Assembly (NCBI RefSeq): GCF_002929845.1
Contig: NZ_PJJS01000049.1
Location: 62,001-126,000 of the forward strand
Origin: Cryobacterium sp. M96
GTDB lineage: Bacteria > Actinomycetota > Actinomycetes > Actinomycetales > Microbacteriaceae
Direction of reading: 5' to 3'
DNA: 64,000 nucleotides
Numbering within the stretch: the stretch's first letter is position 1; each line of letters opens with the position of its first letter. The translations under genes were made by a program, and so were the position numbers. This document shows positions 23,634-36,367 of the stretch, piece after piece. The notes under the pieces were generated by a model, which worked only from the letters and a program-made list of their open reading frames with translations, did no database searches and was not told the origin of the DNA.

Positions 23634-24602
23634 CTAGTTGCTGCGGATGTCCTGCGGTCCGGCGGCGAGGACGCGGTCGTATTCGGCCTTCGCTGCAGCG
23701 TTGCGTTCGGTGACGGCACGGCCGTTGCGGGCGATCCAGGCGCCGGCCCAGATCGGCACCTCGCGGGCGACGACCGCAGCGGCGATGGCCCCCGGGTTCA
23801 GCCACTGCTGGCTGATGAAGCGCGCCGCCTGGTCGGGCGTGAAGTTCCAGGCCTGCACGCTCAACAGCGCCGCCCCGATGTAGGAGAAGTAGACGACCAC
23901 GGCCACCAGGAAGCCGAAGAGCACGTAGGCCCACCAGCCGCCGCGGTTCACGATCAGCACCAGCAGGGCGAACGCGACGAAGAAGAAGATGACCGGCACG
24001 TAGAAGATGGGCAGCACGATGAAGTCGGTGAACTTCGAGGCCGTCTCGGTGATCGAGAGGCTGCCGATGCCGGACAAGACAAAGGCGACGATGGCATAGA
24101 TCACGGCGAAGATGACGGTGGAGAGCAGGGCGATCAGCACGCCGGGGCCGCGGTTGCTCTTGTAGCGGGGCGCGGTCGGCGCCTGGATGTAGACGGGGGG
24201 CTGCGCCGTGGTGTTCGTGGGGGCATAGGCCTCGGCGGGTGGGGCCTCTGATGGGGTCGCAGCCGGGTTCTCGCCGGGCTCGATGCGCCGGGTCTCGGCG
24301 GTGGTGTTCACCGGGGCGATGTTCACGGAGGCGGCGGGCACGTAGGTGGGCGTCGCGGGCTCGCGGGAGGTCGCGGGGGTGTCATAGGAGATCGGCTCGC
24401 CGACGGGGGTGGCCGGGTAGTGCGCCGGTGTCTCAGCGGCAGCATCGGTCGCGTCGCCGGACTCGGCCGGAGCGGAGTGGGAGCCGGTGCCGGTGTAGTC
24501 GGGGGCATCCGTGCGCTCTTCATGGCCGGCGTAGTCGACCGGTTCAAGATTCGAGTCGTTGTTACGGTTGCGGTTGCCCTCAGGGGACGTTGTGTCGCTC
24601 AT
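23634..24602 (-). CDS. Membrane protein with long disordered N-terminus
   Basis: 322 aa. The first ~155 residues are polar and low in complexity, rich in Asn, Thr, Pro, Ala and Glu. They are followed by three or four membrane helices (GVLIALLSTVIFAVIYAIVA, FYVPVIFFFVAFALLVLIV, WAYVLFGFLVAVVVYFSY) and a charged C-terminal tail. ATG 24602 with AAGGAG upstream. Function not recognised; the layout is common among actinobacterial envelope proteins. Confidence 0.7.
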   Translation of the reverse strand: MSDTTSPEGNRNRNNDSNLEPVDYAGHEERTDAPDYTGTGSHSAPAESGDATDAAAETPAHYPATPVGEPISYDTPATSREPATPTYVPAASVNIAPVNTTAETRRIEPGENPAATPSEAPPAEAYAPTNTTAQPPVYIQAPTAPRYKSNRGPGVLIALLSTVIFAVIYAIVAFVLSGIGSLSITETASKFTDFIVLPIFYVPVIFFFVAFALLVLIVNRGGWWAYVLFGFLVAVVVYFSYIGAALLSVQAWNFTPDQAARFISQQWLNPGAIAAAVVAREVPIWAGAWIARNGRAVTERNAAAKAEYDRVLAAGPQDIRSN

Positions 24603-24705
24603 GGTGCGCTCCTTGTGGTTGGCCGGGACGATCAGCATCAATCTTAGCAATGCGACTCCCCCGGTCGAGGGAGGCGTGACCGGACGCGGCGCTGGTCAAG
24701 TCGGG

Positions 24706-25482
24706 CTAGCCTGCGGGGGTTGTTGCGGCGGCCGTATTGGGATCGAGAAGAACGTAGATGAGCGCCGAGATCGTGGTAGTCACCTGATCCGAACCCCCGA
24801 GGGTGTCGATGGCGGTCTTGTCGGTGGCCGCTGGCGCTGCAATGGGGGGAGACTCAACCATGGATGTTGCAAAGGTCGTCACCATGACCAACCGGGTGCC
24901 CTTCTGAAGACCCTCGATAAAGTCGAGCACGTTCCCATAGCTGCCGGAAACGGTGAGGGAGACGGGCACGGACACGAAGTTCGAGGCAGTGATGAGCTCA
25001 TTGGGCACGGGAGCGAGGGCTGCGGCCTCCTCAGCCGCCGTCGGTGCCGTGGTTGGGGTGGGAGTGGGTGTTGGTGACGCAGCACCCTCTGTCGGCGCCG
25101 CCTCAGCTGCCAGTGCGGGGGGAGCGACAACGAGGGGTGCGTACGCCTGGGCGTCGTTCACCGAAATGTCGGTCAGCGTCACTTGATGCTGCTGCGCGAT
25201 GGAGTCCAGCTGAGTGAGGAATGCGGGGATCTCAGCCGCATCTGGGACAGCCGATCTGAGCGCCGACAATTCGCCCTTGAGTTCTCCAATGCTGGCGAAT
25301 TTCTCCTTTAGGGCAGCGACTTTGAGCTCAGATGCTGAATTTTGGGTCTCGACCACGACACGATCTGCGTCGGCGAGACTCGCTTCACTGAGTTTCGGGG
25401 AAATCCCGAGGACCCAGCCGAGGAGGGCGGTGGCCGCGATCAACACAACGGTGCCAAAAACCCAGAGCCTGTTCAGGTCCAT
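24706..25482 (-). CDS. pilO: Type IV pilus assembly protein PilO-like
   Basis: 258 aa. One N-terminal membrane helix (LWVFGTVVLIAATALLGWVLG), a coiled coil (residues ~30-75), then an alpha/beta PilO-like domain. The middle is interrupted by a Pro/Thr/Ala linker (about 150-175). The C-terminal half has SVPVSLTVSGSYGNVLDFIEGLQ, a PilO hallmark. ATG 25482, two bases after pilN. It forms the inner-membrane alignment complex with PilM and PilN. Last gene of the pilus operon. Confidence 0.85.
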   Translation of the reverse strand: MDLNRLWVFGTVVLIAATALLGWVLGISPKLSEASLADADRVVVETQNSASELKVAALKEKFASIGELKGELSALRSAVPDAAEIPAFLTQLDSIAQQHQVTLTDISVNDAQAYAPLVVAPPALAAEAAPTEGAASPTPTPTPTTAPTAAEEAAALAPVPNELITASNFVSVPVSLTVSGSYGNVLDFIEGLQKGTRLVMVTTFATSMVESPPIAAPAATDKTAIDTLGGSDQVTTTISALIYVLLDPNTAAATTPAG

Positions 25483-25484
25483 GC

Positions 25485-26150
25485 TTACTTTCCTTCCGGG
25501 TCGGCAAAGCGATTCGAATACGCTCCACCGTTGATGTGCATGACCAGGTTGACGGTATACGCGCCCGTCTCGGATCGTTTGATCGACCCGGGGGTGGCAT
25601 CCGCGTAGCCAGGCAGCCCCTTGATTGCGTCGAGCCACTGCGGTACGGACGGCAGGTTCGGACTGGTCACGGTGAGCGTGAGAGTCGCAACACGCGCAGC
25701 TTGCAGGGGTGCCGTGGGTTGGATGTATACGCCGAGTGGCGACGCGGCATCTACGCCGACCGTATCGATGGAAACGTCTGCTGGCAGCGCGGCCCTAACC
25801 TGAGACAGGTAGGCCTTCCAGTCGACTTCGGTGGACGCACCGAATTGCCGTGCTGCAAGGGTGATGTCGACTTCATTTTGGACCTGATTTACTTCGGCAT
25901 ACTTTGCCTGACTGGCGAGCAACTCTGCCGTGCGCGCCTGGGCGGAGGCAAGCTCATCCCGGCTCTGCTGCGCATGCCATGTGGCTGCGCCGACGCCAGT
26001 GATCATCAGCAGTACCACGGCGACGAGAGTAGCCCCAAGACGCCGACGCGTTGCGTTAGCCTTCTTGCCTGCCTTGACCTCCGGCGGCAACAAGTCAACG
26101 CGCGGCTCTCCACCAAAGACAAGCTCCTCGCCGACCTTGGAGCGGCTCAT
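25485..26150 (-). CDS. pilN: Type IV pilus assembly protein PilN-like
   Basis: 221 aa. A short cytoplasmic start with VDLLPPEV, the PilM-binding motif (family consensus INLLP), at residues ~19-25. Then a membrane helix (LVAVVLLMITGVGAATW), coiled coil, and a ferredoxin-like domain (ALPADVSIDTVGVD, LTLTVTSPNLPSVPQWLDAIKGLPG). ATG 26150 overlaps the pilM stop by 4 nt. Confidence 0.87.
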   Translation of the reverse strand: MSRSKVGEELVFGGEPRVDLLPPEVKAGKKANATRRRLGATLVAVVLLMITGVGAATWHAQQSRDELASAQARTAELLASQAKYAEVNQVQNEVDITLAARQFGASTEVDWKAYLSQVRAALPADVSIDTVGVDAASPLGVYIQPTAPLQAARVATLTLTVTSPNLPSVPQWLDAIKGLPGYADATPGSIKRSETGAYTVNLVMHINGGAYSNRFADPEGK

Positions 26151-27187
26151 GCGTGGCTCCCAAGGGCGAGTCCCAGTGCGACGGTAAACGCACCACGAGT
26201 GTTCTGCAGCGCATCGACGTTGACGCCACGCGCAAGCAATACTGAAGCAGCGGGATCGGCCTCAAAAACTGGAAGTCGTGTCAACTCGCCTAGCGCGGCA
26301 GCGAAGCCACGCAAGTGAGCTCCACCGCCAGTAAGGACAATCCGCGTTACTGGAATGTGGTTTCTCGTGTTCACGAAATAGTTGACTGTGTTCCTCAGAC
26401 TGTTGAGCAGTTCGGTCGTCACCTCGTGGATGATCGAAGTCGCCTGCGGATGCTCCGTCGCTGGGTCCAGACCGATCTTACGTTTAAGTAGCTCAGCCTC
26501 CTCGACGGTCAAACCCAGACGGAGGACCATCGCTTGGGTGAGGTCTCCACCTCCCGCGGGGATGAGCCGCACGAATTGAGGGACACCCTGCAGTGTGACA
26601 ACAACAGTGGTGGTTGCCAAACCGACGTCGATCTGCACCACCCCGCCATCCGATTTCACACCTCTGTGGATTACCCGAGTCAGTGCGAACGGGATCAGAT
26701 CTACTTCAACGGGCGTGAGTCCAGCCAACTGAACCGCCTTGACATTTCCCTGAACCGCATCCTTGACGGCTGCAATCAGTAGCCCGTTTACCTCTGGCCC
26801 GGATTCTCCTTCGCTCTCGGAAATAGGATAAAAGTCGAGCAGGGCGTCGGCCACCGGGACCGCGAGCAGATCCTGCACTTGGAAGGGAAGAGACTCCCGG
26901 ATGCGTTTGATGGGCATTTTGGGCACCGTGAGATCGCGCGCAAGTACGCGATGGTTGCCCATACCCAGCACTACCTTCTTGCTCTTGAAACCGCCTGATG
27001 ACCACAAGGTCTTGATCGCGGCCGCGACAGTGTTGGGCTCAACAACCTCACCACGGTTGACCGCACCTTCAGGCAATTCCACCGAGTGGTAGCGAAGTAA
27101 GGTCGGCTTCCCCTTGTCTGCGTCACTCACCTCAGCGGCACGCACACCGGACGTTCCGATGTCGATTCCTACGACACTTGTCGTCAT
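26147..27187 (-). CDS. pilM: Type IV pilus assembly ATPase-like PilM
   Basis: 346 aa actin-fold cytoplasmic protein that binds the PilN N-terminus. Phosphate-1 VVGIDIGTSGVRAAEV, VVQIDVGLATTTVVV (phosphate-2), adenosine-site VLTGGGAHLRGFAAAL. ATG 27187 has GAGGGAGA upstream; the frame extends to 27226 without a ribosome site. 25 bp after pilD. Confidence 0.9.
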   Translation of the reverse strand: MTTSVVGIDIGTSGVRAAEVSDADKGKPTLLRYHSVELPEGAVNRGEVVEPNTVAAAIKTLWSSGGFKSKKVVLGMGNHRVLARDLTVPKMPIKRIRESLPFQVQDLLAVPVADALLDFYPISESEGESGPEVNGLLIAAVKDAVQGNVKAVQLAGLTPVEVDLIPFALTRVIHRGVKSDGGVVQIDVGLATTTVVVTLQGVPQFVRLIPAGGGDLTQAMVLRLGLTVEEAELLKRKIGLDPATEHPQATSIIHEVTTELLNSLRNTVNYFVNTRNHIPVTRIVLTGGGAHLRGFAAALGELTRLPVFEADPAASVLLARGVNVDALQNTRGAFTVALGLALGSHA

Positions 27188-27212
27188 TGCTTCTCCCTCG
27201 CGACTGCTGCGG

Positions 27213-28028
27213 TCATGCCAAACCAAAAAGCGACAGATAACCAGTGGCTATCTGTTCACCATAGAAGATGCCTAGCCATGCTCCAGCCAACATCCAAGGG
27301 CCAAACGGGATGCCGCTCTTGCGGTTGGCACGACGGGTGATGAGGAGCAAGAGCGCGAACAGGCCACCCAGTAGAAACGCACTGAACGCCCCGACAGCGA
27401 GCTGCCCCCAGCCGAACCATCCCAAGTAGAGGCCGAGCAGCCCAGCGAGCTTGACGTCGCCCAACCCCATGCCGGCCGGATAGGCCAACGCCATCAATAA
27501 ATACAGTGCAAAAAGCCCGCAAACTCCGATGAGAGCGCCCAACAACCGACCGGGTTCACCGGTCAGCAAGGCGGCAACGGCCAGCAATGCAGCCCCGGCC
27601 GGGTAGGCCGGGAGCACGAGTCGGTCAGGGAGCGTGTGCGTGTCCAGATCGATCGCTGCCAGCGCGACGCTCACTGACACAAGATAGAGCAGAGCGAGAA
27701 GGATGAATGCGGTTCCGAGACTCACCCTTGTGGGGCCGATGGCGGGGCTCCATGAAAGCAACCATGTGGCCACGACTCCGAAGAGCACAGCAGTGCCCAG
27801 CTCAACGATCGGGTATCTCGAAGAGATCCTCACATTGCAGTCTCTGCAACGGCCACGCAAGTACAACCACGACAGAACAGGAACGTTGTCCCAAGGGCGA
27901 ATTCTGCTGCCGCAAGCGCCGCAGGCGCTCGGCGGAGACACGACGGACATCTTGAGTGGGAGCCGGTAGATGACGACGTTGAGGAACGATCCTATAAAAG
28001 ATCCGAAAACCCCGAGAAGAACCGCCAC
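27213..28028 (-). CDS. pilD: Prepilin peptidase / N-methyltransferase
   Basis: Cleaves prepilin leaders after Gly and methylates the new N-terminus. 271 aa with about eight membrane helices. N-terminal LLGVFGSFIGSFLNVVIYRLP, two Cys pairs (CGACG, CRDCN) of the methylase domain, and both catalytic Asp motifs: AIDLDTHTLPD and GMGLGDVKLAG. I chose GTG 28028, one base after the upstream stop, giving the usual short N-terminus; the frame opens at 28094. Confidence 0.92.
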   Translation of the reverse strand: MAVLLGVFGSFIGSFLNVVIYRLPLKMSVVSPPSACGACGSRIRPWDNVPVLSWLYLRGRCRDCNVRISSRYPIVELGTAVLFGVVATWLLSWSPAIGPTRVSLGTAFILLALLYLVSVSVALAAIDLDTHTLPDRLVLPAYPAGAALLAVAALLTGEPGRLLGALIGVCGLFALYLLMALAYPAGMGLGDVKLAGLLGLYLGWFGWGQLAVGAFSAFLLGGLFALLLLITRRANRKSGIPFGPWMLAGAWLGIFYGEQIATGYLSLFGLA

Positions 28029-28029
28029 G

Positions 28030-29676
28030 CTAGGACACGTTAATGTTGCGAATCGCGGTACGGGCGCCGAGGACACCTGTTCCTGGGAGGCCACCGCCGG
28101 GCGTCGTAGTGCCTTCGCTCAGGTTGACACCGGGAATCCCGATAGGAACGTAATTCAAGGTGAACGCATTAGCTGTCTTGGTTCCGGCCGCATAGATCTG
28201 CCCTTGCCAGACGTCGGCAGAGTTGGTGATCGTGCACGGCGAGTAGATCAGGGCGTTCACACGGCTGCTAACAGTGACATGATTGGCCATCTTGAAGGCT
28301 CCGCCCGCTGGGCAGTCCGGCAGCTGGTTGGCCACGAGGTTGCCAGCGACGCCGCGATCGGGACTGATCAGCCACATGTTCTTCTGGGCCGAGTTGGACG
28401 AGACGAAGTCGTTACCACCAAGGTTGAACGAGGTAGCGATGATGGCCACGTTGCTCGTCAACGTCTGTGTGGGGCTGAGTTTGGTGAAATCCAGACCTCC
28501 GGGTCCACAGGCAAGCCCATTGAGCACCTTCGGAGTGGAAGACGCAAGCACTGTGCTCATGGCGCTGACGAAACCTGCGTCGCTGCAGTCCGCCATGAGG
28601 AACTCGGTGAAGCCCCCAGGCGTCCAATCGCCCAAGGCGTAGGGGTAGTCCACCCATCCAGGTACGAATGGAATGACGGGTGCGACGATGCCCGTCTTAT
28701 TCTTGGTGATGGTTCCTAGGACGCTTCCGGTGTTGTTTACAGTGCCCGCTACGACGACCGAACCCGCCACGGAGCCCGTAATCTTAGTCACCCCAGCGGC
28801 GGGTCCAGCGATGACGTTCCCACCACCTGCACCCTGCACCAGAACCGCACCACCCGCAGAGATGTTTCCCTGAACGGTCGCGGCGTTTGACAGAGACACC
28901 GAAGGATAGGTTCCGCTGTCGGCACTCACATTGCCGGTGACCTTTGCATTCTGCAGATCCACACTTCCCGACGCATAGAGGTCACCGTCGATAAGGCAAT
29001 TGCTGGCCAAAGATGCCCCACCCTGGCCAAGAATCACGCTGCCGTGGATCGTGGAACCGGACGTGCAGCTCGCGCTTCCCGATAGGTACTGAATCGTGGC
29101 GGGTGTGCCGCCGGTGGAGTTAATATCTAGATTGTTGATGGTGCTATCGGTCTGCGAGAAGGAGTAGATCGCGGCACCCGAAGCCGTTATCCAAGTCGGC
29201 GGCGTCGGAATGTAGGGATAAATGGCTTCAATTTTCCGCTTGTTTCCAGAGGCGTTTCCGACCAGGCCGGGAGTTTTCGCCGATCCGGTGGATATGAGTT
29301 TGACCCTCTTGAAGGAGGCCGAGGTGGGGCAACCAGACACCCACGAAGTGTCAACGTCACCGGTTGCAGAGGCCGTCAGGAGTGAAGACCATACCGAGAC
29401 GGTGAAGAAGGGTTCCGAGACCGCCGGAACGGCCGGATACGCAGCCAGACAGGCTGAAGTTGCCAATCGAGCGGCAGCGTAGTCGATCCCTGCCCCGGCA
29501 GCGGCCTGCGCCTGCACGCCGGATCGCGTCGCTGTTGTGTACCCCACCGCGTAGAGCGAGCTCGAGGTGATCGTGATCGCTATGATCGCCGCCACTGCTG
29601 TCATGCCGATCGCCACCAGCATGGCGCTGCCACGTTCTGGACACAAGCGGTCTGAGATTCTCTTACTTAGAAGCAC
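28030..29676 (-). CDS. PilX-like pilus protein with bactofilin-like repeat region
   Basis: 548 aa. N-terminus CPERGSAMLVAIGMTAVAAIIAITI is a PilX-type membrane anchor with RGSAMLV at the mature junction. Residues ~70-165 are a Cys-containing region. Residues ~175-340 are short repeats of the form x-G-s-V-x-L/V-x-x-a (IHGSVILGQ, IDGDLYASGSV, VTGNVSAD, VQGNISAGG, ITGSVAGSVVV), suggestive of a right-handed beta-helix like bactofilins. A Cys-bearing C-terminal region follows. GTG 29676 overlaps pilW by 10 nt. Position among the minor pilins suggests a pilus-tip or surface component; the fold is my inference. Confidence 0.7.
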   Translation of the reverse strand: MLLSKRISDRLCPERGSAMLVAIGMTAVAAIIAITITSSSLYAVGYTTATRSGVQAQAAAGAGIDYAAARLATSACLAAYPAVPAVSEPFFTVSVWSSLLTASATGDVDTSWVSGCPTSASFKRVKLISTGSAKTPGLVGNASGNKRKIEAIYPYIPTPPTWITASGAAIYSFSQTDSTINNLDINSTGGTPATIQYLSGSASCTSGSTIHGSVILGQGGASLASNCLIDGDLYASGSVDLQNAKVTGNVSADSGTYPSVSLSNAATVQGNISAGGAVLVQGAGGGNVIAGPAAGVTKITGSVAGSVVVAGTVNNTGSVLGTITKNKTGIVAPVIPFVPGWVDYPYALGDWTPGGFTEFLMADCSDAGFVSAMSTVLASSTPKVLNGLACGPGGLDFTKLSPTQTLTSNVAIIATSFNLGGNDFVSSNSAQKNMWLISPDRGVAGNLVANQLPDCPAGGAFKMANHVTVSSRVNALIYSPCTITNSADVWQGQIYAAGTKTANAFTLNYVPIGIPGVNLSEGTTTPGGGLPGTGVLGARTAIRNINVS

Positions 29677-30266
29677 GGGGAGCTCACCATCGAAACTTGT
29701 GGGGTGTAGGTCGTTGTGTTGATCAAGACATATGGGTGCGATCCGGCCGCGACATTGAACTTCAGGTCCACGCGAGAACCGCTTGGAGCGTTGAAGACTC
29801 GCGCGGTAACGGGGTCTGCGGGACTTATCCCGGTACCGAGAAGAGACCAGACGCCCTGGGGGCCAGCGGCCGGCACCGTAATCACGGACGCCGGAGAGGA
29901 TGTCCGCTTCGTGTAGACAGCACCACCGTTCAGCGGCGTGTAGTACCAGGCCTGACAGGAGGCCGCCGTCGAAGACGGCTCGGTTCCGATGGTCCGGACT
30001 ATCAGCAGTTGCGTACCGGCTGCGGCATCGCTGACTACCGTGACCGCGGAGGCGTTGCGCACTCCAGCCTGGACGGAACGCGCAATCTGCTGAGCGGTGG
30101 TCGCGGCGCCCGTGACGACCCGAGTTGTCTCCTGTGTTCGCAAGCCGTTGATCAACAGCCCACCTGCGACGAACAAGACGAGAACGAGAAGACCCATGTA
30201 GATCAAGAGTTCAGCAAGGGAAAACCCCCCTTCGCGACATTTTTGAGTCGGTGCCTGTTCTGACAT
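29667..30266 (-). CDS. pilW: PilW-like minor pilin
   Basis: 199 aa. Prepilin junction CREGG/FSLAELLIYMGLLVLVLF with Glu at mature position 5. The C-terminal domain is beta-rich with AASCQAWYYTPLNGG and terminal SSPCF, which could form one disulfide. ATG 30266, two bases after pilV. Likely primes pilus assembly. Confidence 0.8.
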   Translation of the reverse strand: MSEQAPTQKCREGGFSLAELLIYMGLLVLVLFVAGGLLINGLRTQETTRVVTGAATTAQQIARSVQAGVRNASAVTVVSDAAAGTQLLIVRTIGTEPSSTAASCQAWYYTPLNGGAVYTKRTSSPASVITVPAAGPQGVWSLLGTGISPADPVTARVFNAPSGSRVDLKFNVAAGSHPYVLINTTTYTPQVSMVSSPCF

Positions 30267-30268
30267 GG

Positions 30269-30724
30269 CTAGTATCCGCCCGAGGCGACGAAGACGAACG
30301 TGGTGGCGGAGGCCGTCGGACTCGCATAACCGACTTGGGCTACCGACACAGTCACCCGAATATACCCCGGCACCACGCTGGGTGTGCACGGGGCGAAGGT
30401 GTCCCATGCAGGCTGCAGGTTCACTCCGCGAGGATCGACCACAGGCGCCAGAGTTACGGCCAAAAACAAGCTGATGTCATTGCAGCTCGGCGCAGTAGCT
30501 GTGGCGGAGCGGACGGCACGAGCCGCCTCGATTTGCTGATTGACAATCTGAGTTGCGGTGGCAATCGTCGTATTCCTCGCCGTGAACTGCAAGTTACTGA
30601 TGAGAACAGGAGCGAAGGAGATGATCAGCAAGCCAAGCAGGAACATGGAGACGACGATCTCGATAATCCCAAAACCGCTTTCCTCGATACTCACTGCACG
30701 AGAATCAACGCGGATCTCATTCAT
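30269..30724 (-). CDS. pilV: PilV-like minor pilin
   Basis: 151 aa. Junction EESG/FGIIEIVVSMFLLGLLIISFAPV, with Glu at mature position 5. The C-terminal domain has two Cys (APSCNDIS, FAPCTPS). ATG 30724 with AGCGAGGTAAGG directly upstream. Separated from the pilin gene by 95 bp holding a perfect 14-bp palindrome (30784-30797). Confidence 0.8.
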   Translation of the reverse strand: MNEIRVDSRAVSIEESGFGIIEIVVSMFLLGLLIISFAPVLISNLQFTARNTTIATATQIVNQQIEAARAVRSATATAPSCNDISLFLAVTLAPVVDPRGVNLQPAWDTFAPCTPSVVPGYIRVTVSVAQVGYASPTASATTFVFVASGGY

Positions 30725-30819
30725 CCTTACCTCGCTTAACTGGTGTGGTTGTGTCGAAGCGACCATGGCCCGTAGTCGAACCGGCGCACGCGTGCGCTAC
30801 CACGTGACTTGATGACCTG

Positions 30820-31302
30820 CTATTGAGTGAGCACCCCAGCAGCTGAATACGCGGTCGAAGCGCTGGTAGCCACTCCGAAGATATTGCTAGCGCGGACTTC
30901 CGAATCGGTAACAGAGACTGCGTAGATGCAGGAGCCAGTTGACGGAGACGTGCCCTTGCTAAGCACGGGGCTAGCGCCGCTCGGCGGAGCATAGTTTCCA
31001 GCAGAGGTCGACGCAATATACCCGTACTTGGATGCTAAATTCGCGGAAGTCAGGTCAGCGGGAAGCATCCCATTCTCGTCCGTCGCATAAGCGACAACAG
31101 CGCTCTTAGCGTTTACGACGTCCGACTTTACGGGGCTATCGTGGGCTTCCTTCTGGACGCCCAGGTTAAGGGGGAAAGAGATTGCGGCAAGAACACCGAT
31201 GATAATTACCACGACGAGGAGTTCAATCAACGTGAATCCCTTTTCCTCCGCCTGAAGCACTGTCTGCTGAGAAGGCAGCACAAGGGAAGTGTGAGAAGTC
31301 AT
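30820..31302 (-). CDS. Type IV pilin, second tandem copy
   Basis: 160 aa. 22-residue leader, then EEKG/FTLIELLVVVIIIGVLAAISFPLNLG, a textbook class III signal with Glu5. The globular part parallels the upstream pilin (SDVVNAKSAVVAYATDENGMLPADL, KYGYI, VLSKGTSPSTGSCIYAVSVT, GVLTQ end) but has only one Cys where the upstream copy has two. ATG 31302. A hairpin separates it from the upstream copy, so it is probably less expressed. Confidence 0.88.
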   Translation of the reverse strand: MTSHTSLVLPSQQTVLQAEEKGFTLIELLVVVIIIGVLAAISFPLNLGVQKEAHDSPVKSDVVNAKSAVVAYATDENGMLPADLTSANLASKYGYIASTSAGNYAPPSGASPVLSKGTSPSTGSCIYAVSVTDSEVRASNIFGVATSASTAYSAAGVLTQ

Positions 31303-31347
31303 CAACCCTGTCCGTTCGATACTGCATGACAATGTTTCGAGAGGAAA

Positions 31348-31388
31348 CAATCTGGGGGCGGCCGCGCACAAAACCCACCCCCAGATTG
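31348..31388 (-). terminator. Attenuating hairpin between the two pilin genes
   Basis: Perfect 11-bp inverted repeat CAATCTGGGGG (31378-31388 and 31348-31358 on the minus strand) around a 19-nt loop, followed by TTTCC. It sits just past the stop of the first pilin. A partial terminator here would favour the first pilin over downstream genes, a usual design for major pilins. Confidence 0.65.
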
Positions 31389-31400
31389 AATCCGCAATTG

Positions 31401-31886
31401 CTACTGCGTGAGCACTCCGACGCTTGAACATGCAGTCGTTGCGCTGGAGGCGACACCGGAAATGTCGCTAGCGCCGACCTTGGTGCCAGTGACGGCTACT
31501 GCGTAAACGCAGAATGCAGTCGAAGGGGACGTTCCTTTCGTGAGGACCGGAATCGCGCCAGGCGAGGCGTAGTTTCCTGCAACCGTCGGCGGCACGTATC
31601 CGTATTTCGCGGGCAACGTAGCGAGGTCGGCAGGCAGTGCGCCATTGTTGTCCGTGGCGTAGGCCACGACTGCCGTTTTGGCGTTGGAGACGTCCGACTT
31701 CACGGCACTGTCCTTCGCGTTGTTCTGGATACCGAGGTACACCGGAATGGCGATGGCGGCGAGGATGCCGATGATGATGACGACGACGAGGAGCTCGATC
31801 AGGGTGAAGCCCTTTTCGCTCTTCTGCAGTGAATTACGGCGGCTGTTGAGCCCGCCCATGATGCGAGAAATCATGAGGATGTCCAT
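31401..31886 (-). CDS. pilA: Type IV pilin, probable major subunit
   Basis: 161 aa. Leader of 26 residues, junction SEKG/FTLIELLVVVIIIGILAAIAIPVYLG with Glu5, then NNAKDSAVKSDVSNAKTAVVAYATDNN and a C-terminal region with two Cys (AFCVYAV, TTACSSVG). ATG 31886 is used; ATG at 31874 or 31859 would shorten the leader, and none has a good ribosome site. It has its own promoter candidate upstream and a hairpin downstream, fitting a highly expressed major pilin. Confidence 0.9.
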   Translation of the reverse strand: MDILMISRIMGGLNSRRNSLQKSEKGFTLIELLVVVIIIGILAAIAIPVYLGIQNNAKDSAVKSDVSNAKTAVVAYATDNNGALPADLATLPAKYGYVPPTVAGNYASPGAIPVLTKGTSPSTAFCVYAVAVTGTKVGASDISGVASSATTACSSVGVLTQ

Positions 31887-32049: not shown

Positions 32050-33279
32050 CTACTCGATCAGTGTCGAGATGTTAAAAATCGGGAGGTAGAGGGCGACGAT
32101 CATGCCACCAACCACGACACCAAGAAAGGCAACCATCAGCGGTTCGATCATGGCGGTCAGCTGCTCGGTGGCCGACTCGACCTCCTGATCGTAAAAGTCC
32201 GCGATCTTGTTGAGCATCTGCTCGAGGGAACCAGAGTCCTCGCCAACGGAGATCATCTGGGTCACCATGTTCGGAAACACCGGTTCGTTCGCAAGAGGGG
32301 CGCCAATCGAGTGTCCTTGGCGCACTGAGTCGGCTACTTTGATGAGCGCCTGCTCGACCACCCAGTTGCCCGAAGTCTCACCTACGATGTGGAGGGCCTG
32401 CAGGATCGGCACGCCAGCCCCGATCATGTTGGCAAAATTCCGGCTAAATCTGGCTACAGCGATCTTCTTGAGCAACGGCCCAAAGACAGGCAGCTTCAAC
32501 TTGAACGGGTCAAGGAGCTTGCGCACACCTTCGGTGTTCTTGTTGCGCGGCCACCAAATTGCAAACGCGATCCCAACCACGGCGAGAATCGGCACGACAT
32601 AAACCATTGACCGGGACAGATACACGAGCAGCATGGTCGGCAACGGAAGCTGGCCTCCCAGGTTCGTGAACATGTTCTCAAACACTGGAACGATGAAGAC
32701 CAACATTGCGATAACAGCCACGAGAGACATGATCAAAACGATCACGGGGTATGTCATTGCAGACTTGATCGTGCCGCGCAGTTTCACTTCTTTCTCGAAG
32801 TTCTCTGCAATCGATTCGAGCGCGCCTTCAAGGAAACCTCCGGTCTCCCCAGCCCGAACCATGTTGACCATCAGCGGGGGAAACGCCTCGGCATGTTGAG
32901 CCATCGAGTCAGAGATCGATACGCCAGTCTCGACGTCGTCCCTTACAGCGATCAGAACTTTCGTGAGTGGCTTGCTCTCAGTTTGCTCCGCAAGGATATT
33001 TAGCGTTCGCAGGAGCGACAGGCCGGCGCCGATCATGGTGGCCATCTGACGACTCATGATCGCCAAGTCCTTCAGACCCACTCCCTTTGTGAAACCGGGG
33101 ATGTTGATCTCCATGTTGAGGCCAGCGCCCTGCGGGACCTCAACCATCGAGATTGGAGACAATCCCATCGTGCGCAGGCGCGTCATGGCGGCACTTTCGG
33201 AGGCGGCATCCAACCGACCTTTAACTGCCTTGCCGGCTGCATCACGAGCCTTGTACGCATAAGCCACTGTCGCGACCAT
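32050..33279 (-). CDS. pilC: Type IV pilus inner-membrane platform protein PilC
   Basis: 409 aa. Two T2SSF cytoplasmic domains each followed by membrane helices: YAYKARDAAGKAVKGRL start, LRTLNILAEQ, AEAFPPLMVNMVRAGETGGFLEGAL in the first; RFSRNFANMIGAGVPILQALHIV and FPNMVTQMISVGEDSGSLEQMLNKIADFYD in the second. Docks the motor ATPases. ATG 33279 abuts the pilT stop. Confidence 0.93.
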   Translation of the reverse strand: MVATVAYAYKARDAAGKAVKGRLDAASESAAMTRLRTMGLSPISMVEVPQGAGLNMEINIPGFTKGVGLKDLAIMSRQMATMIGAGLSLLRTLNILAEQTESKPLTKVLIAVRDDVETGVSISDSMAQHAEAFPPLMVNMVRAGETGGFLEGALESIAENFEKEVKLRGTIKSAMTYPVIVLIMSLVAVIAMLVFIVPVFENMFTNLGGQLPLPTMLLVYLSRSMVYVVPILAVVGIAFAIWWPRNKNTEGVRKLLDPFKLKLPVFGPLLKKIAVARFSRNFANMIGAGVPILQALHIVGETSGNWVVEQALIKVADSVRQGHSIGAPLANEPVFPNMVTQMISVGEDSGSLEQMLNKIADFYDQEVESATEQLTAMIEPLMVAFLGVVVGGMIVALYLPIFNISTLIE

Positions 33280-34677
33280 CTACCGCCCCCGTGGGGAGAA
33301 AGAGTCGCCGAAGTCGATTCCGCCGGACATTGAGTTCACCGATGTCTCGGTCGGGTCAACGCGTCGGATCAGTTGCGCAAGGCCCTCCTGGTCCTGCGCC
33401 TTCTCCTCAGCCGACGCTCGGGTGATCAGACCGGCATCCACGAGTTCGGCAAGGTGCTGATCCATGGTGTGCATGCCGAGGGCTCGGCCGGCCTGCATTG
33501 AGGACGCGATCTGGTACGTCTTGCCCTCGCGAATCAAGTTAGCTACCGCTGGTGTGGTCACCATGACCTCGGTCGCGACCACGCGGCCGCCACCGATCTT
33601 CTTGACCAGGGTCTGGCAGACCACACCCTGCAGGGTGGCGGCAAGTTGTGCACGCACCTGGCCCTGCTGGTGCGGCGAGAACACGTCGATCACGCGGTCG
33701 ATGGTCTGGGCCGCGGATTGGGTGTGCAGGGTGGCGAAGACGAGGTGGCCGGTCTCTGCCGCGGTCAGGGCCACCGAAATGGTCTCCAGGTCGCGCAGCT
33801 CGCCGATCAGAATCACGTCAGGGTCCTGACGCAGCACGTGCTTGAGCGCGGAGGCGAAGCTTTTCGTGTCGTGGCCGACCTCGCGCTGGTTGACCAGCGA
33901 CTTCTGGTGCTTGTGCAGAAACTCGATCGGGTCTTCGACCGTGACGATGTGGTCGGCACGGGTGCGGTTGACCAAGTCGATCAGGGCCGCCAGGGTGGTG
34001 GACTTGCCCGAACCGGTGGGCCCGGTCACCAGAACCAGGCCGCGGGGAAGCTTGGCGAACTGACCGACCGTCTCGGGGATACCGAGGTCTTTCAACGGCT
34101 TGATCTCGCGCGGGATCAGGCGGAACGCCCCGCCGATCGAGTTGCGCTGGTAATAGTAGTTGACGCGAAAGCGCGCGCCGCCGGCCGTATACGCGAAGTC
34201 GAGCTCGAGCTCCTCCTCGAACTGCGCGCGCTGCTTCGCCGAGAGGATGCTGTAGAGCGCAGAGGTGACCTTGTCACCCATCCACTTGCTCGCGCCCTCA
34301 ATCGGCCGCAGGCCGCCATCGACACGAATGCTCGGCGGCGCTCCGACGGTGATGTGCAGGTCGGAGGCGTTCAGGTCGAGAACCTCGGCCAGGGCGTTCA
34401 GCAGGTCAAGGTCGGAGACCTCGTTGTCGCCGGTGCGGTTGGCACGGGCGCGGCGCCCGGTCGTCTCGACCGCGCCGGTGTCCACCGGGAGGACCGTTGT
34501 CGCCGGCTGCGCGGCATCCGTCACATCGACGAACTCGAACTCCACCGAGTCAGGAGCGGCCGGCGCGGCATCGTGCTCCGTCGGTTCGGCACCACGACGC
34601 TCGGGATCGCCGAGGCTCCAGCTGCCCCCGGCGGCCCCAGGAGACGTGACCGGAATTTCATAGATGGGCTGGCTCAT
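33280..34677 (-). CDS. pilT: Pilus retraction ATPase PilT, with N-terminal extension
   Basis: 465 aa hexameric AAA-type motor. Walker A GPTGSGKSTT, Asp box VTVEDPIEFLH, Walker B DVILIGELRDLETI, His box TGHLVFATLHTQSAAQTI. The family core starts near residue 88 (LLNALAEVLDLNASDLHIT). The preceding ~85 residues are an acidic, Pro/Ala-rich disordered extension not usual for PilT (~350 aa). Presence implies retractile pili and twitching ability. Confidence 0.93.
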   Translation of the reverse strand: MSQPIYEIPVTSPGAAGGSWSLGDPERRGAEPTEHDAAPAAPDSVEFEFVDVTDAAQPATTVLPVDTGAVETTGRRARANRTGDNEVSDLDLLNALAEVLDLNASDLHITVGAPPSIRVDGGLRPIEGASKWMGDKVTSALYSILSAKQRAQFEEELELDFAYTAGGARFRVNYYYQRNSIGGAFRLIPREIKPLKDLGIPETVGQFAKLPRGLVLVTGPTGSGKSTTLAALIDLVNRTRADHIVTVEDPIEFLHKHQKSLVNQREVGHDTKSFASALKHVLRQDPDVILIGELRDLETISVALTAAETGHLVFATLHTQSAAQTIDRVIDVFSPHQQGQVRAQLAATLQGVVCQTLVKKIGGGRVVATEVMVTTPAVANLIREGKTYQIASSMQAGRALGMHTMDQHLAELVDAGLITRASAEEKAQDQEGLAQLIRRVDPTETSVNSMSGGIDFGDSFSPRGR

Positions 34678-34696: not shown

Positions 34697-36367
34697 CTAT
34701 GCGACCACTCGCAAGATTTCTTCGATCGATGTCAAACCCATTTGGGCCTTGGCCCAGCCATCCTCGCGGAGGGTGATCATGCCCTGTTCGCGCGCCACCC
34801 GGCCGATTTCGGCGCTCGATGCTCGGGCCACGGCGAGCCGCTCGATCTCCTCGGTCACGGTCATCACCTCGTGCACGGCGATGCGCCCCCGGTAACCGGT
34901 CTTCGAACACTGCGTGCAGCCGACCGCCTCGAAGATCGTGGGCAGCGGGCGCTCCGGGTCGAACGCGAAGCGGAGGCGCGTCAGGTAGTCGACGGTCAGC
35001 ACGGATGGCGTCTTGCACTTGTCGCAGAGGCGCCGCGCCAGGCGCTGGGCGACCACGCAGTCCAGGGCGGAACCCACCAGGAAGGGCTCGATACCCATTT
35101 CCGTCAGCCGGGTGATGGCGCTCGGCGCGTCGTTGGTGTGCAAAGTGGAGAGCACGAGGTGGCCGGTCAGCGAGGCCTCGATGGCGATCTGCGCGGTCTC
35201 GTGGTCGCGGATCTCACCCAGCAGAACGACATCCGGGTCGCTTCGCAGGATGGAACGCAGCGCACTCGCGAAGGTGAGGCCCGCCTTCGGGTTCACCTGC
35301 ACCTGGTTGATGCCGGCCATGCGGTATTCGACCGGGTCTTCGACCGTGATCACGTTGATCTCGGGGCGGGCGACCGCACCCAGGGTCGTGTAGAGCGTGG
35401 TGGACTTGCCCGAACCGGTCGGACCGGTGATCAGGATCATGCCGTAAGGCTTGGAATAGGAGGTCTTGTAGGCCTCGAAGTTGTGCTCGAGCAGGGCCAG
35501 CGCGCGCACGTCGAGGGTCGTGTTCGAGTTATCGAGAATTCGCATGACGACCTTCTCGCCCCACACTGTGGGGAGAGTCGCAACGCGCAGGTCGATCTGA
35601 CGGCCGGCATGGCGCACGGTCATGCGGCCGTCCTGGGGTTTGCGCCGCTCGGCGATGTCGATATCGCTCATGATTTTGAGCCTGGAGATAACACCGTTCT
35701 GGATGCTCTTGGGTGCGGTCTGCATCTCGTGCAGCACGCCGTCGATGCGGTAGCGCACCCGCAGGCTGTGCTCGCCGGGTTCGATGTGGATGTCCGAGGC
35801 CAGGTCCTGGATGGCCTGGCTGACCAACAGGTTCACGAACCGCACGATCGGGGCATCGTCGTCGATGGAGTCCGAGACTCCGAAAGAGGAGCTCTCGGTG
35901 GCGGCGTTCTCTTCCTCGAGTGTGGAGGTGAGGTCGCTGAGCTCGTCGTCGGCGCGGTGGTAGCGGGTGATGGCGGCGAGTAGATCGCTGCGCTCGGCGA
36001 CAACCTGGGTGACGCGCATCCGTGATGCTTCGCGCACGTCGTCGACGGCGAAGACGTTGCCAGGGTCGACCATGGCGAGGATGAGGCGGCCGTTGTCGAC
36101 GGCGATCGGGAGCACTTCGTGGCGTTTGCAGACGGCCACCGGAACGAGAGCCACGGCGAGGCGATCGACCGGGTAGTCGATCAGCTCGACGAAGGGCAGG
36201 TTGGCCTGCTGGGCCCGAGCCTTGGCGAACTGAACCTCGGTGATGACGCCCTTGGCGACGAGGGCGCGGACGGCGCTCTCATCGGCGGGGTCGCCGGCCA
36301 TGAGGTGGTCGAGCTCCTCGATCGGCAGCAGACCGTGCAGGATCAAGATTTCGGTGAGGCTGGCCAC
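34697..36367 (-). CDS. pilB: Pilus extension ATPase PilB
   Basis: 556 aa. N-terminal MshEN/GspE_N-type domain (residues ~1-140, LTEILILHGLLPIEELDHLM), then the motor: Walker A GPTGSGKSTTLYTTL, VTVEDPVEYR, Walker B DVVLLGEIRDHETA, STLHTNDAPSAI, and a tetracysteine zinc motif (CDKCK...CTQCSKTGYRGR). GTG 36367 with GAGAGGAT upstream. First gene of the pilus operon. MshEN domains can bind c-di-GMP, but the Arg-Leu-Gly residues of the motif are not clearly kept. Confidence 0.93.
   Translation of the reverse strand: MASLTEILILHGLLPIEELDHLMAGDPADESAVRALVAKGVITEVQFAKARAQQANLPFVELIDYPVDRLAVALVPVAVCKRHEVLPIAVDNGRLILAMVDPGNVFAVDDVREASRMRVTQVVAERSDLLAAITRYHRADDELSDLTSTLEEENAATESSSFGVSDSIDDDAPIVRFVNLLVSQAIQDLASDIHIEPGEHSLRVRYRIDGVLHEMQTAPKSIQNGVISRLKIMSDIDIAERRKPQDGRMTVRHAGRQIDLRVATLPTVWGEKVVMRILDNSNTTLDVRALALLEHNFEAYKTSYSKPYGMILITGPTGSGKSTTLYTTLGAVARPEINVITVEDPVEYRMAGINQVQVNPKAGLTFASALRSILRSDPDVVLLGEIRDHETAQIAIEASLTGHLVLSTLHTNDAPSAITRLTEMGIEPFLVGSALDCVVAQRLARRLCDKCKTPSVLTVDYLTRLRFAFDPERPLPTIFEAVGCTQCSKTGYRGRIAVHEVMTVTEEIERLAVARASSAEIGRVAREQGMITLREDGWAKAQMGLTSIEEILRVVA

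What the first reader, a model, noticed from the sequence alone, without database searches (positions are those of the whole stretch)
28030..29676. Pilus protein combining a PilX-type anchor with a bactofilin-like repeat region
Residues ~175-340 repeat a short hydrophobic/Gly pattern (xGsVxL, xGNIsA, ITGSVAGSVVV) like polymer-forming beta-helix proteins, placed after a pilin-like N-terminus and among minor pilin genes. I know no described pilin of this architecture. It could be a tip adhesin or a filament-capping element.
Basis: inference. Interest (0 to 1): 0.6.

Follow-up and report, generated by a model that had tools for sequence, protein, structure and literature searches.

The report
Pilus-tip protein with beta-solenoid head
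This gene most likely makes the tip piece of a retractable bacterial pilus, carrying a rod-like beta-solenoid head that probably grips something outside the cell; similar pilus proteins are already known, but this actinobacterial family of them looks undescribed.

Summary
ORF 28030-29676(-), 548 aa, has a prepilin leader and pilin helix followed by a confidently predicted beta-solenoid. It is the last minor pilin of a type IVa pilus cluster (pilB, T, C, A, A, V, W, this, pilD, M, N, O). The solenoid is probably not a bactofilin: this protein scores below Pfam's cut-off (one homologue passes it), 8 cysteines are conserved, and the nearest solved folds are tapirins (attachment proteins), the Thermus tip pilin ComZ and ice-binding proteins. 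The N-terminal part alone resembles pilins and pseudopilins. In 49 of 49 fetched loci pilD or pilM follows the gene directly. Solenoid length varies strongly between steadier flanks. Relatives with the same anchor carry other heads, three of them ricin-type lectins. The tip protein is much less conserved than the pilus machinery. Best reading: a GspK/PilX-type modular tip pilin presenting an exchangeable ligand-binding head. The kind is known (ComZ; modular pilins of Streptococcus sanguinis; a bactofilin-motif pilin noted in Shewanella). I found no description of this family in the papers I could search.

The parts
28030..29676 (-). gene of the modular tip pilin (548 aa)
29629..29676 (-). prepilin leader, residues 1-16, ending in the invariant glycine before the presumed cleavage site; no Glu at +5
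   Evidence: G16 52 of 52, no Glu at residue 21 in 52; cleavage inferred
29458..29628 (-). N-terminal pilin helix, residues 17-73
29197..29451 (-). pilin-like beta-strands, residues 76-160
   Evidence: best VIA-align matches are pilins and pseudopilins
28687..29184 (-). beta-solenoid head, residues 165-330
   Evidence: VIA-align matches to tapirin, ComZ, ice-binding proteins
28807..29010 (-). stretch that matches Bactofilin PF04519 below cut-off, residues 223-290
28141..28644 (-). helices and further strands of the head, residues 345-512, with four of the eight conserved cysteines
28033..28140 (-). C-terminal segment, residues 513-548, proposed to return to the pilin sheet as in ComZ
   Evidence: whole-length alignment to ComZ, model 49-548; inference
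29667..30407 (-). PilW-like minor pilin; its stop overlaps the start of the tip pilin
   Evidence: N_methyl below cut-off; the name is by position
30269..30766 (-). PilV-like minor pilin
   Evidence: TIGR02523 E 3.8e-5, below cut-off
30820..31431 (-). prepilin, PilA-like (second copy)
31401..31886 (-). prepilin, PilA-like (first copy)
32050..33279 (-). pilC, platform protein
   Evidence: named from its sequence by recall, no family search run; ORF, synteny
33280..34677 (-). pilT, retraction ATPase
   Evidence: T2SSE; the name pilT is recalled
34697..36367 (-). pilB, extension ATPase
   Evidence: T2SSE; the name pilB is recalled
27213..28094 (-). pilD, prepilin peptidase (true start probably further in)
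   Evidence: A24_N_bact E 6.2e-34, Peptidase_A24
26147..27226 (-). pilM
   Evidence: PilM_2 E 1.1e-41
25485..26150 (-). pilN by position
   Evidence: position only; no PilN match
24706..25638 (-). pilO
   Evidence: PilO E 3.1e-8

Best explanation
The gene encodes a GspK/PilX-type modular minor pilin. PilD cuts the leader after G16 (inferred). The helix packs into the pilus as the first, terminal subunit on top of the PilV/PilW-like pilins (inferred from the lack of Glu at +5, gene order and head size). The domain that begins at about residue 165 is a beta-solenoid of the tapirin/ComZ/ice-binding-protein fold class (predicted structure), probably braced by disulfides, too large for the shaft, so it is displayed at the tip. 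There it acts as an adhesin: PilB extends the pilus, the head binds a surface ligand, and PilT pulls the cell towards it (inferred). The ligand is unknown. I rank a polysaccharide first, then another surface such as a cell, then DNA. The number of solenoid rungs and the kind of head change between strains.
For: Helix and pilin strands. The six best VIA-align matches of the N-terminal fragment are all type IV pilins or pseudopilins (6qvf Z 7.9; S. sanguinis PilA 7.2; ComZ 6.4; Xcp pseudopilins 5.8, 5.5, 5.3). Head: tapirins Z 16.7-18.0, ComZ Z 15.2 over model 49-548, ice-binding proteins about 13; ComZ is also Foldseek's first hit (E 3.7e-3). Secreted chemistry: eight Cys kept in 49-52 of 52. 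Pilus linkage: pilM matches in 49 of 49 loci and pilD in 47 of 49; pilD starts within 400 nt of the tip gene in 45 of 49 and pilM does so in the other four; 28 of 29 genomes with the protein have pilM. In 11 of 13 examined genomes with pilM but no hit, a protein with the same anchor lies directly before pilD. Other heads: ricin-type lectin on the same anchor in L090, L112, L128 (E 1.5e-15, 4.4e-17, 2.4e-10), all within pilus clusters; L091 matches the ice-binding-like adhesive domain PF20597 just over cut-off. Low conservation: median identity 27% in the solenoid against 55% PilM, 72% PilT, 68% PilC over 46 loci. Length varies between C227 and C364 (50-245 residues) but little in the flanks. 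Rung-like motifs carry aromatics in excess, 64 against a shuffle mean of 10. PMC9934059 (passages) describes a bulky K subunit capping the tip complex.
Against: I found no measured function for any member. The Foldseek E-values are weak (no hit at E<=0.001 for either model) and the pilin-part Z-scores are under 8. The ComZ superposition has rmsd 9.8, so its domain orientation is not matched. The return of the C-terminus to the pilin sheet is inferred. Tip location is not shown. One homologue, L016, passes Pfam's Bactofilin cut-off (30.5 against 27.9 bits). The aromatic excess uses a motif chosen afterwards on related sequences. Identities of the tip protein are taken over alignment columns, those of the machinery over the best local segment, which favours the machinery somewhat.
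Confidence: 0.75

Rival explanations
1. ComZ-like DNA receptor: the head (alone or with its neighbour pilins) binds extracellular DNA for natural transformation.
For: ComZ is Foldseek's first hit and aligns over model 49-548; its tip DNA-receptor role is published (PMC6561018, abstract, passages and one section). A comEC-type gene is in the own genome; 59 of the 60 genomes searched, own included, have one.
Against: comEC is as common where pilM is missing, so it does not discriminate. The PDB search with the family profile did not list ComZ. In Micrococcus luteus, another actinobacterium, transformation uses Flp/Tad pili (PMC4322843 search listing; PMC6916266 passages), and the own genome has further secretion-type ATPases outside this cluster. 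Com pili of other monoderms capture DNA through a ComGD-ComGF interface, not a large head (PMC12153270, passages). Lectin heads on the same anchor point to other ligands.
Confidence: 0.15
2. Structural priming or capping pilin: the protein starts pilus assembly like GspK/PilX, and the solenoid is a passive cap or stalk with no ligand of its own.
For: Slot and anchor are conserved while heads differ; tip complexes prime assembly (PMC9934059, passages).
Against: A passive cap would not be expected to be so much less conserved than the machinery, to change length widely or to be replaced by lectins. Priming and adhesion can also coexist.
Confidence: 0.1
3. True bactofilin domain: the region polymerises into cytoskeletal filaments or links the pilus to a bactofilin scaffold.
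For: PF04519 match 20.1 bits; 12 of 23 homologues match at E<=0.05 and one, L016, is over the cut-off with 30.5 bits; the profile finds BacA 2n3d at E 0.0056 and another bactofilin, 6ria, at 0.11 as the first two PDB hits.
Against: Below the curated cut-off in the window protein, in 9 of the 10 homologues that match it, and in all 7 of those that match it. The model's best folds are tapirin and ComZ. Eight conserved cysteines and the prepilin leader place it outside the cytoplasm (inference).
Confidence: 0.04
4. Ice-binding pilus: the head binds ice or ice-structured water, in keeping with cold-living Cryobacterium.
For: DUF3494-type ice-binding proteins match at Z about 13; one of 23 members touches PF11999 at E 0.04 (L027); a PilX_N with PF11999 architecture is listed in an Arctic metagenome table (PMC9957290, passages).
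Against: The family is also in genera not known as cold specialists, such as Leifsonia and Microbacterium (habitat recalled). The window protein does not match PF11999 at E<=1. ComZ's solenoid is closest to an ice-binding protein yet binds DNA (PMC6561018), so the fold shows no function.
Confidence: 0.05

Closest known systems
ComZ of Thermus thermophilus (PDB 6qvi)
   Same: Pilin domain closest to GspK, large beta-solenoid within the pilin fold, Gly instead of Glu at +5, encoded among pilin genes, argued to sit at the tip (PMC6561018, abstract, passages, one section). Aligned to the model at Z 15.2.
   Different: ComZ not listed in the profile search of PDB sequences; ComZ's solenoid is about 380 residues; domain orientation differs in the superposition (rmsd 9.8); conserved cysteines and a monoderm host here; no DNA-binding evidence here.
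Tapirins of Caldicellulosiruptor (4wa0, 6n2b, 6n2c)
   Same: Best fold match to the head, Z 16.7-18.0 over about 165-525; attach cells to lignocellulosic material (PMC9933333, passages).
   Different: Solved as C-terminal domains; the match covers no pilin part; ligand here untested. I could not read the primary papers.
Modular pilins PilB and PilC of Streptococcus sanguinis
   Same: Pilin module plus grafted adhesive module, proposed tip location, monoderm host (PMC8179133, PMC9934059, passages).
   Different: Modules are vWA and lectin, not solenoid. The 264 architectures of that survey were found through the motif IPR012902 (equated by recall with Pfam N_methyl), and N_methyl does not match the window protein.
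GspK / PilX minor pilins
   Same: Weak GspK match of residues 14-73, no Glu at +5, last minor pilin of the set.
   Different: GspK's insert is alpha-helical (PMC6561018); PilX_N does not match this protein.
Shewanella SO_0850 (PilBac5)
   Different: Named there in passing; I did not compare its sequence.
Bactofilins (PF04519)
   Same: Short hydrophobic/Gly rung pattern, beta-helix (the latter recalled); one homologue over the Pfam cut-off.
   Different: Window protein below cut-off; conserved cysteines, prepilin anchor, pilus locus.

Membership tests
Type IV pilin / pseudopilin | prepilin leader with Gly at -1 followed by a long helix | tested here: met
   G16 in 52 of 52; helix 17-73, 15-73 in the fragment; cleavage itself not shown
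Type IV pilin / pseudopilin | helix followed by pilin beta-sheet | tested here: met
   predicted; six best fold matches are pilins or pseudopilins, Z 5.3-7.9, none at Z 8 or more; Foldseek alone gives no hit at E<=0.001; the fragment lacks the last strand
Type IV pilin / pseudopilin | encoded with a pilus assembly system | tested here: met
GspK/PilX slot | no Glu at +5 | tested here: met
   0 of 52 have Glu
GspK/PilX slot | profile match over curated cut-off | tested here: not met
   GspK 21.9 bits against 130; PilX_N no match; 8 of 23 members match PilX_N at E<=0.05, best 0.0039
GspK/PilX slot | terminal position in the tip complex | not testable with these tools
   -
ComZ-type solenoid pilin | pilin domain plus beta-solenoid in one chain | tested here: met
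   (predicted)
ComZ-type solenoid pilin | solenoid inserted before the last pilin strand | tested here: inconclusive
   C-terminal strands 533-536 and 541-544 predicted and model aligned to ComZ to its end, contacts not examined
ComZ-type solenoid pilin | DNA binding | not testable with these tools
   -
Bactofilin | PF04519 over cut-off | tested here: not met
   20.1 and 22.6 bits against 27.9 for the window protein; one homologue, L016, is over it with 30.5
Bactofilin | cytoplasmic, membrane-attached polymer | not tested
   prepilin leader and conserved cysteines speak against a cytoplasmic site; polymerisation not testable
Tapirin | tapirin fold | tested here: met
   Z 18.0 to 4wa0, 249 residues, rmsd 3.4 (predicted model)
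Tapirin | cellulose binding | not testable with these tools
   -
Ice-binding protein DUF3494 | PF11999 match | tested here: not met
   no match in the window protein at E<=1; one of 23 members at E 0.04, 14.0 bits against 28.7

The most novel reading that the evidence does not exclude
Actinobacterial type IVa pili carry one fixed 'head slot': a GspK-like anchor gene, usually directly before pilD, whose displayed domain is exchanged between strains by recombination. Heads are solenoids of tunable rung number, ricin-type lectins and others, so this slot sets what the pilus binds. The window's protein is the solenoid class of this system.
Probability: 0.35. Interest if true: 0.6.

Novelty: new member of a known kind. 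Interest (0 to 1): 0.42.

Why it matters
The PilY1 tip adhesin of diderms is absent in monoderms, and how their pili stick is only partly understood (PMC9934059, PMC6916266, passages). A syntenic tip gene whose head varies in length and kind across Actinomycetes would give a direct place to look: swap or delete the head and measure what the pilus binds. It also suggests that surveys keyed on the N_methyl motif miss modular pilins with GspK/PilX-type anchors (inference).

Tried and rejected
Bactofilin membership: rejected for the window protein as above, although one homologue passes the Pfam cut-off and bactofilins are the first two PDB hits of the profile; on rechecking this I raised that rival from 0.03 to 0.04. 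ComEC as a marker for a DNA-uptake role: useless, in 59 of 60 genomes. PilY1 search in the own genome found nothing, but the controls rang nowhere, so absence is not shown. Single-sequence periodicity: not significant. PDB sequence search with the single protein: no hit at E 10. Inside the own coding sequence only short repeats turned up. First ORF-extraction scripts failed because of orientation and over-strict patterns; replaced. Literature: the DUF7305/PilX_N search listed three papers on pili of other bacteria (listing only); 'tapirin + type IV pil + cellulose' none; 'Actinobacteria + type IV pil + minor pilin + Microbacteriaceae' one, on Saccharimonadia (listing only). The statement that I found no description of this family rests in an open-access library only.

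Rows left out before the 52-member count: L066 and L069 (the match is split over two frames) and proteins with profile E of 1e-40 or more (anchor-only relatives). Of 16 genomes with pilM and no hit I examined 13 (G050, G051, G052 not). Of 25 anchor-only loci of the class search (L104-L128) I scanned 20 for domains; the five whose frame runs off the locus were left out. Of the 11 anchor proteins found beside pilD, L082, L085, L087 and L093 were not scanned for domains. In one search I scanned 10 of the 49 scan loci. Of the 23 rows of A1, bits for Bactofilin were seen for 21, not for L019 and L030.

Full report
WHAT IS THERE. The ORF at 28030-29676 on the minus strand encodes 548 aa from a GTG. 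Most homologues have a start codon at about the same distance before the helix, so the start is credible. It is the last minor-pilin gene of a type IVa pilus cluster, read on the minus strand: pilB, pilT, pilC, two PilA-like prepilins, a PilV-like and a PilW-like pilin, this gene, pilD, pilM, pilN (by position), pilO (the names pilB, pilT and pilC are recalled, the first two supported by T2SSE matches). The genome belongs to a genus that includes Cryobacterium: contig G013:C10 has the length of Cryobacterium sp. PH31-O1 NODE_2 and G035:C11 that of PH31-L1 NODE_1 (inference).

N-TERMINUS. Residues 1-16 look like a prepilin leader with Gly16 kept in 52 of 52 aligned family members; the +5 residue is never Glu (36 Ala, 5 Gly, 4 Ser, 3 Val, 2 Met, 2 Thr). 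A helix runs over 17-73 and three strands follow. The N-terminal 165 residues folded alone (mean pLDDT 82.9) give, in VIA-align's second look, six leading matches that are all pilins or pseudopilins: T. thermophilus TT_C0855 Z 7.9 (89 residues, rmsd 5.0), S. sanguinis PilA 7.2, ComZ 6.4, and Xcp pseudopilins 5.8, 5.5, 5.3; the seventh is an autotransporter domain at 5.0. These Z-scores are modest, and Foldseek itself gave no hit at E<=0.001, with a pseudopilus chain ranked first at E 1.0. By sequence the closest curated model is GspK (E 1e-4, far below its cut-off); PilX_N does not match this protein but touches 8 of 23 members of the alignment.

HEAD. AlphaFold2 on 23 sequences (mean pLDDT 81, pTM 0.66) builds a beta-solenoid from about 165 to 330, helices between 348 and 393 and further strands to about 510. 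Foldseek ranks ComZ of Thermus first (E 3.7e-3). VIA-align gives tapirins of Caldicellulosiruptor Z 18.0, 16.8, 16.7 (249-253 residues, rmsd 3.4-3.5), ComZ Z 15.2 over model 49-548 (318 residues, rmsd 9.8, so the two domains are oriented differently), and DUF3494-type ice-binding proteins about 13. Bactofilin is a sub-threshold sequence match in the window protein and in most homologues seen, but L016 passes the cut-off (30.5 bits), and bactofilins lead the profile's weak PDB hits (E 0.0056 and 0.11). The family-wide motif spacing peaks at 18 residues (33 cases), a plausible rung.

FAMILY. A genome-contig scan with the alignment gave 49 loci, mostly of genera that I recall as Microbacteriaceae. 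tblastn with the window's pilus proteins found pilM in 49 of 49, pilD in 47, pilW in 46, and pilB, pilT and pilC in 45 each, although several contigs are short and the two ATPases can match each other. In 45 of 49 a pilD match starts within 400 nt of the tip gene's end; in the other four (L037, L038, L040, L042) a pilM match does. The scan used one peptide pattern in the anchor, so a solenoid on another anchor would not have been seen. Among 60 genomes including the own one, 29 have the protein and 44 have pilM; 28 of the 29 have both, and in the exception (G027) it lies on a 6.2-kb contig that also matches pilus ATPase. A class-wide search at E 1e-5 found matches in 59 of 296 genomes; in 54 of the 59 the best match ends by model position 190 of 516, and only the own genome, G013, G037, G170 and G242 match over nearly the whole length: the anchor is widely shared, the head is not.

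OTHER HEADS. In 11 of 13 examined genomes with pilM but no hit, a protein with this anchor lies directly before pilD, mostly with a different head; one of the 11, L091, matches over most of the model. In the other two, L084 and L092, no such protein was found. L090 carries ricin-type lectin repeats (E 1.5e-15) directly before pilD. L112 and L128 carry them too (4.4e-17, 2.4e-10); L128 lies directly before pilD, L112 inside a pilus cluster in another order. L091 matches the ice-binding-like adhesive family PF20597 at 24.0 bits against 23.8. Among the other anchor-only proteins that I scanned, Pfam names no head apart from weak DUF4900 matches.

VARIATION. Over 52 members the eight cysteines (76, 116, 204, 227, 364, 390, 455, 481) are kept in 49-52, the stretch between C227 and C364 ranges from 50 to 245 residues, while the flanking parts range over 150-197 and 161-196. 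Identity to the window protein over 46 loci has medians of 43% (anchor), 33%, 27% (solenoid), 30%, against 55% for PilM, 72% PilT, 68% PilC, 60% PilD and 50% for the first PilA. The tip values are over alignment columns and the others over the best local segment, so the gap is somewhat overstated. The five loci with PilM over 65% identical have solenoids at 26-32%, while the three with the most similar solenoids (46-66%: L032, L033, L034) have PilM at only 44-60%. This discordance suggests that tip genes are exchanged apart from the machinery; no tree test was done. Rung-like motifs hold W, Y, F or H at the presumed outward position 64 times against a shuffle mean of 9.9 (maximum 19 of 300), which would suit sugar binding. 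In the window protein only one of its four motifs shows it, GDLYA, and the motif was chosen after seeing the data on related sequences.

MECHANISM. PilD processes the leader; the subunit without Glu5 caps the PilV/PilW-like complex, as the K subunit does in other type 4 filaments (PMC9934059, passages); the solenoid projects from the tip; the head binds; PilT retracts. Shown: genes, synteny, conservation. Predicted: folds. Inferred: cleavage, tip position, binding. Ligand: unknown, a polysaccharide most likely given the tapirin-like fold and lectin heads on the same anchor.

KNOWN OR NEW. ComZ already joins a GspK-like pilin to a beta-solenoid and is argued to be a tip DNA receptor (PMC6561018: abstract, passages and one section read). 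Modular pilins are a recognised class with 264 architectures (PMC8179133, passages). A bactofilin-motif pilin was noted in Shewanella in 2015 (PMC4376143, passages). In 2019 the actinobacterial pili studied were of the Tfpc/Flp kind (PMC6916266, passages). So the kind is known; the family, its synteny, its variable solenoid and its lectin alternatives I did not find described in the searched library (searches listed under Tried and rejected).

Noticed in passing
30820-31431 and 31401-31886, minus strand: Two tandem PilA-like prepilins, both over the IV_pilin_GFxxxE cut-off; the second ORF has a long stretch before its cleavage site and may start further in.
   Followed up: no
relatives G003, G013, G014, G020, G031, G034, G035 and others: Several genomes of the genus carry two or more pilM copies, hence several pilus clusters; two loci of 21 kb hold two tip genes each (L038, L043).
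   Followed up: partly
own genome, contigs C50, C51, C20: Three further secretion-type ATPases over the T2SSE cut-off outside the window cluster, perhaps Tad/Flp pili.
   Followed up: no
23634-24650, minus strand: Membrane protein gene beyond pilO with a match in 31 of 49 loci; no Pfam family over cut-off.
   Followed up: no
L090, L112, L128: Pilus anchor proteins with ricin-type lectin heads.
   Followed up: partly
relatives G007, G012, G013, G014, G021, G024: One pilM match each with a single stop inside: decay, sequencing error, or a match running past the gene's end.
   Followed up: no
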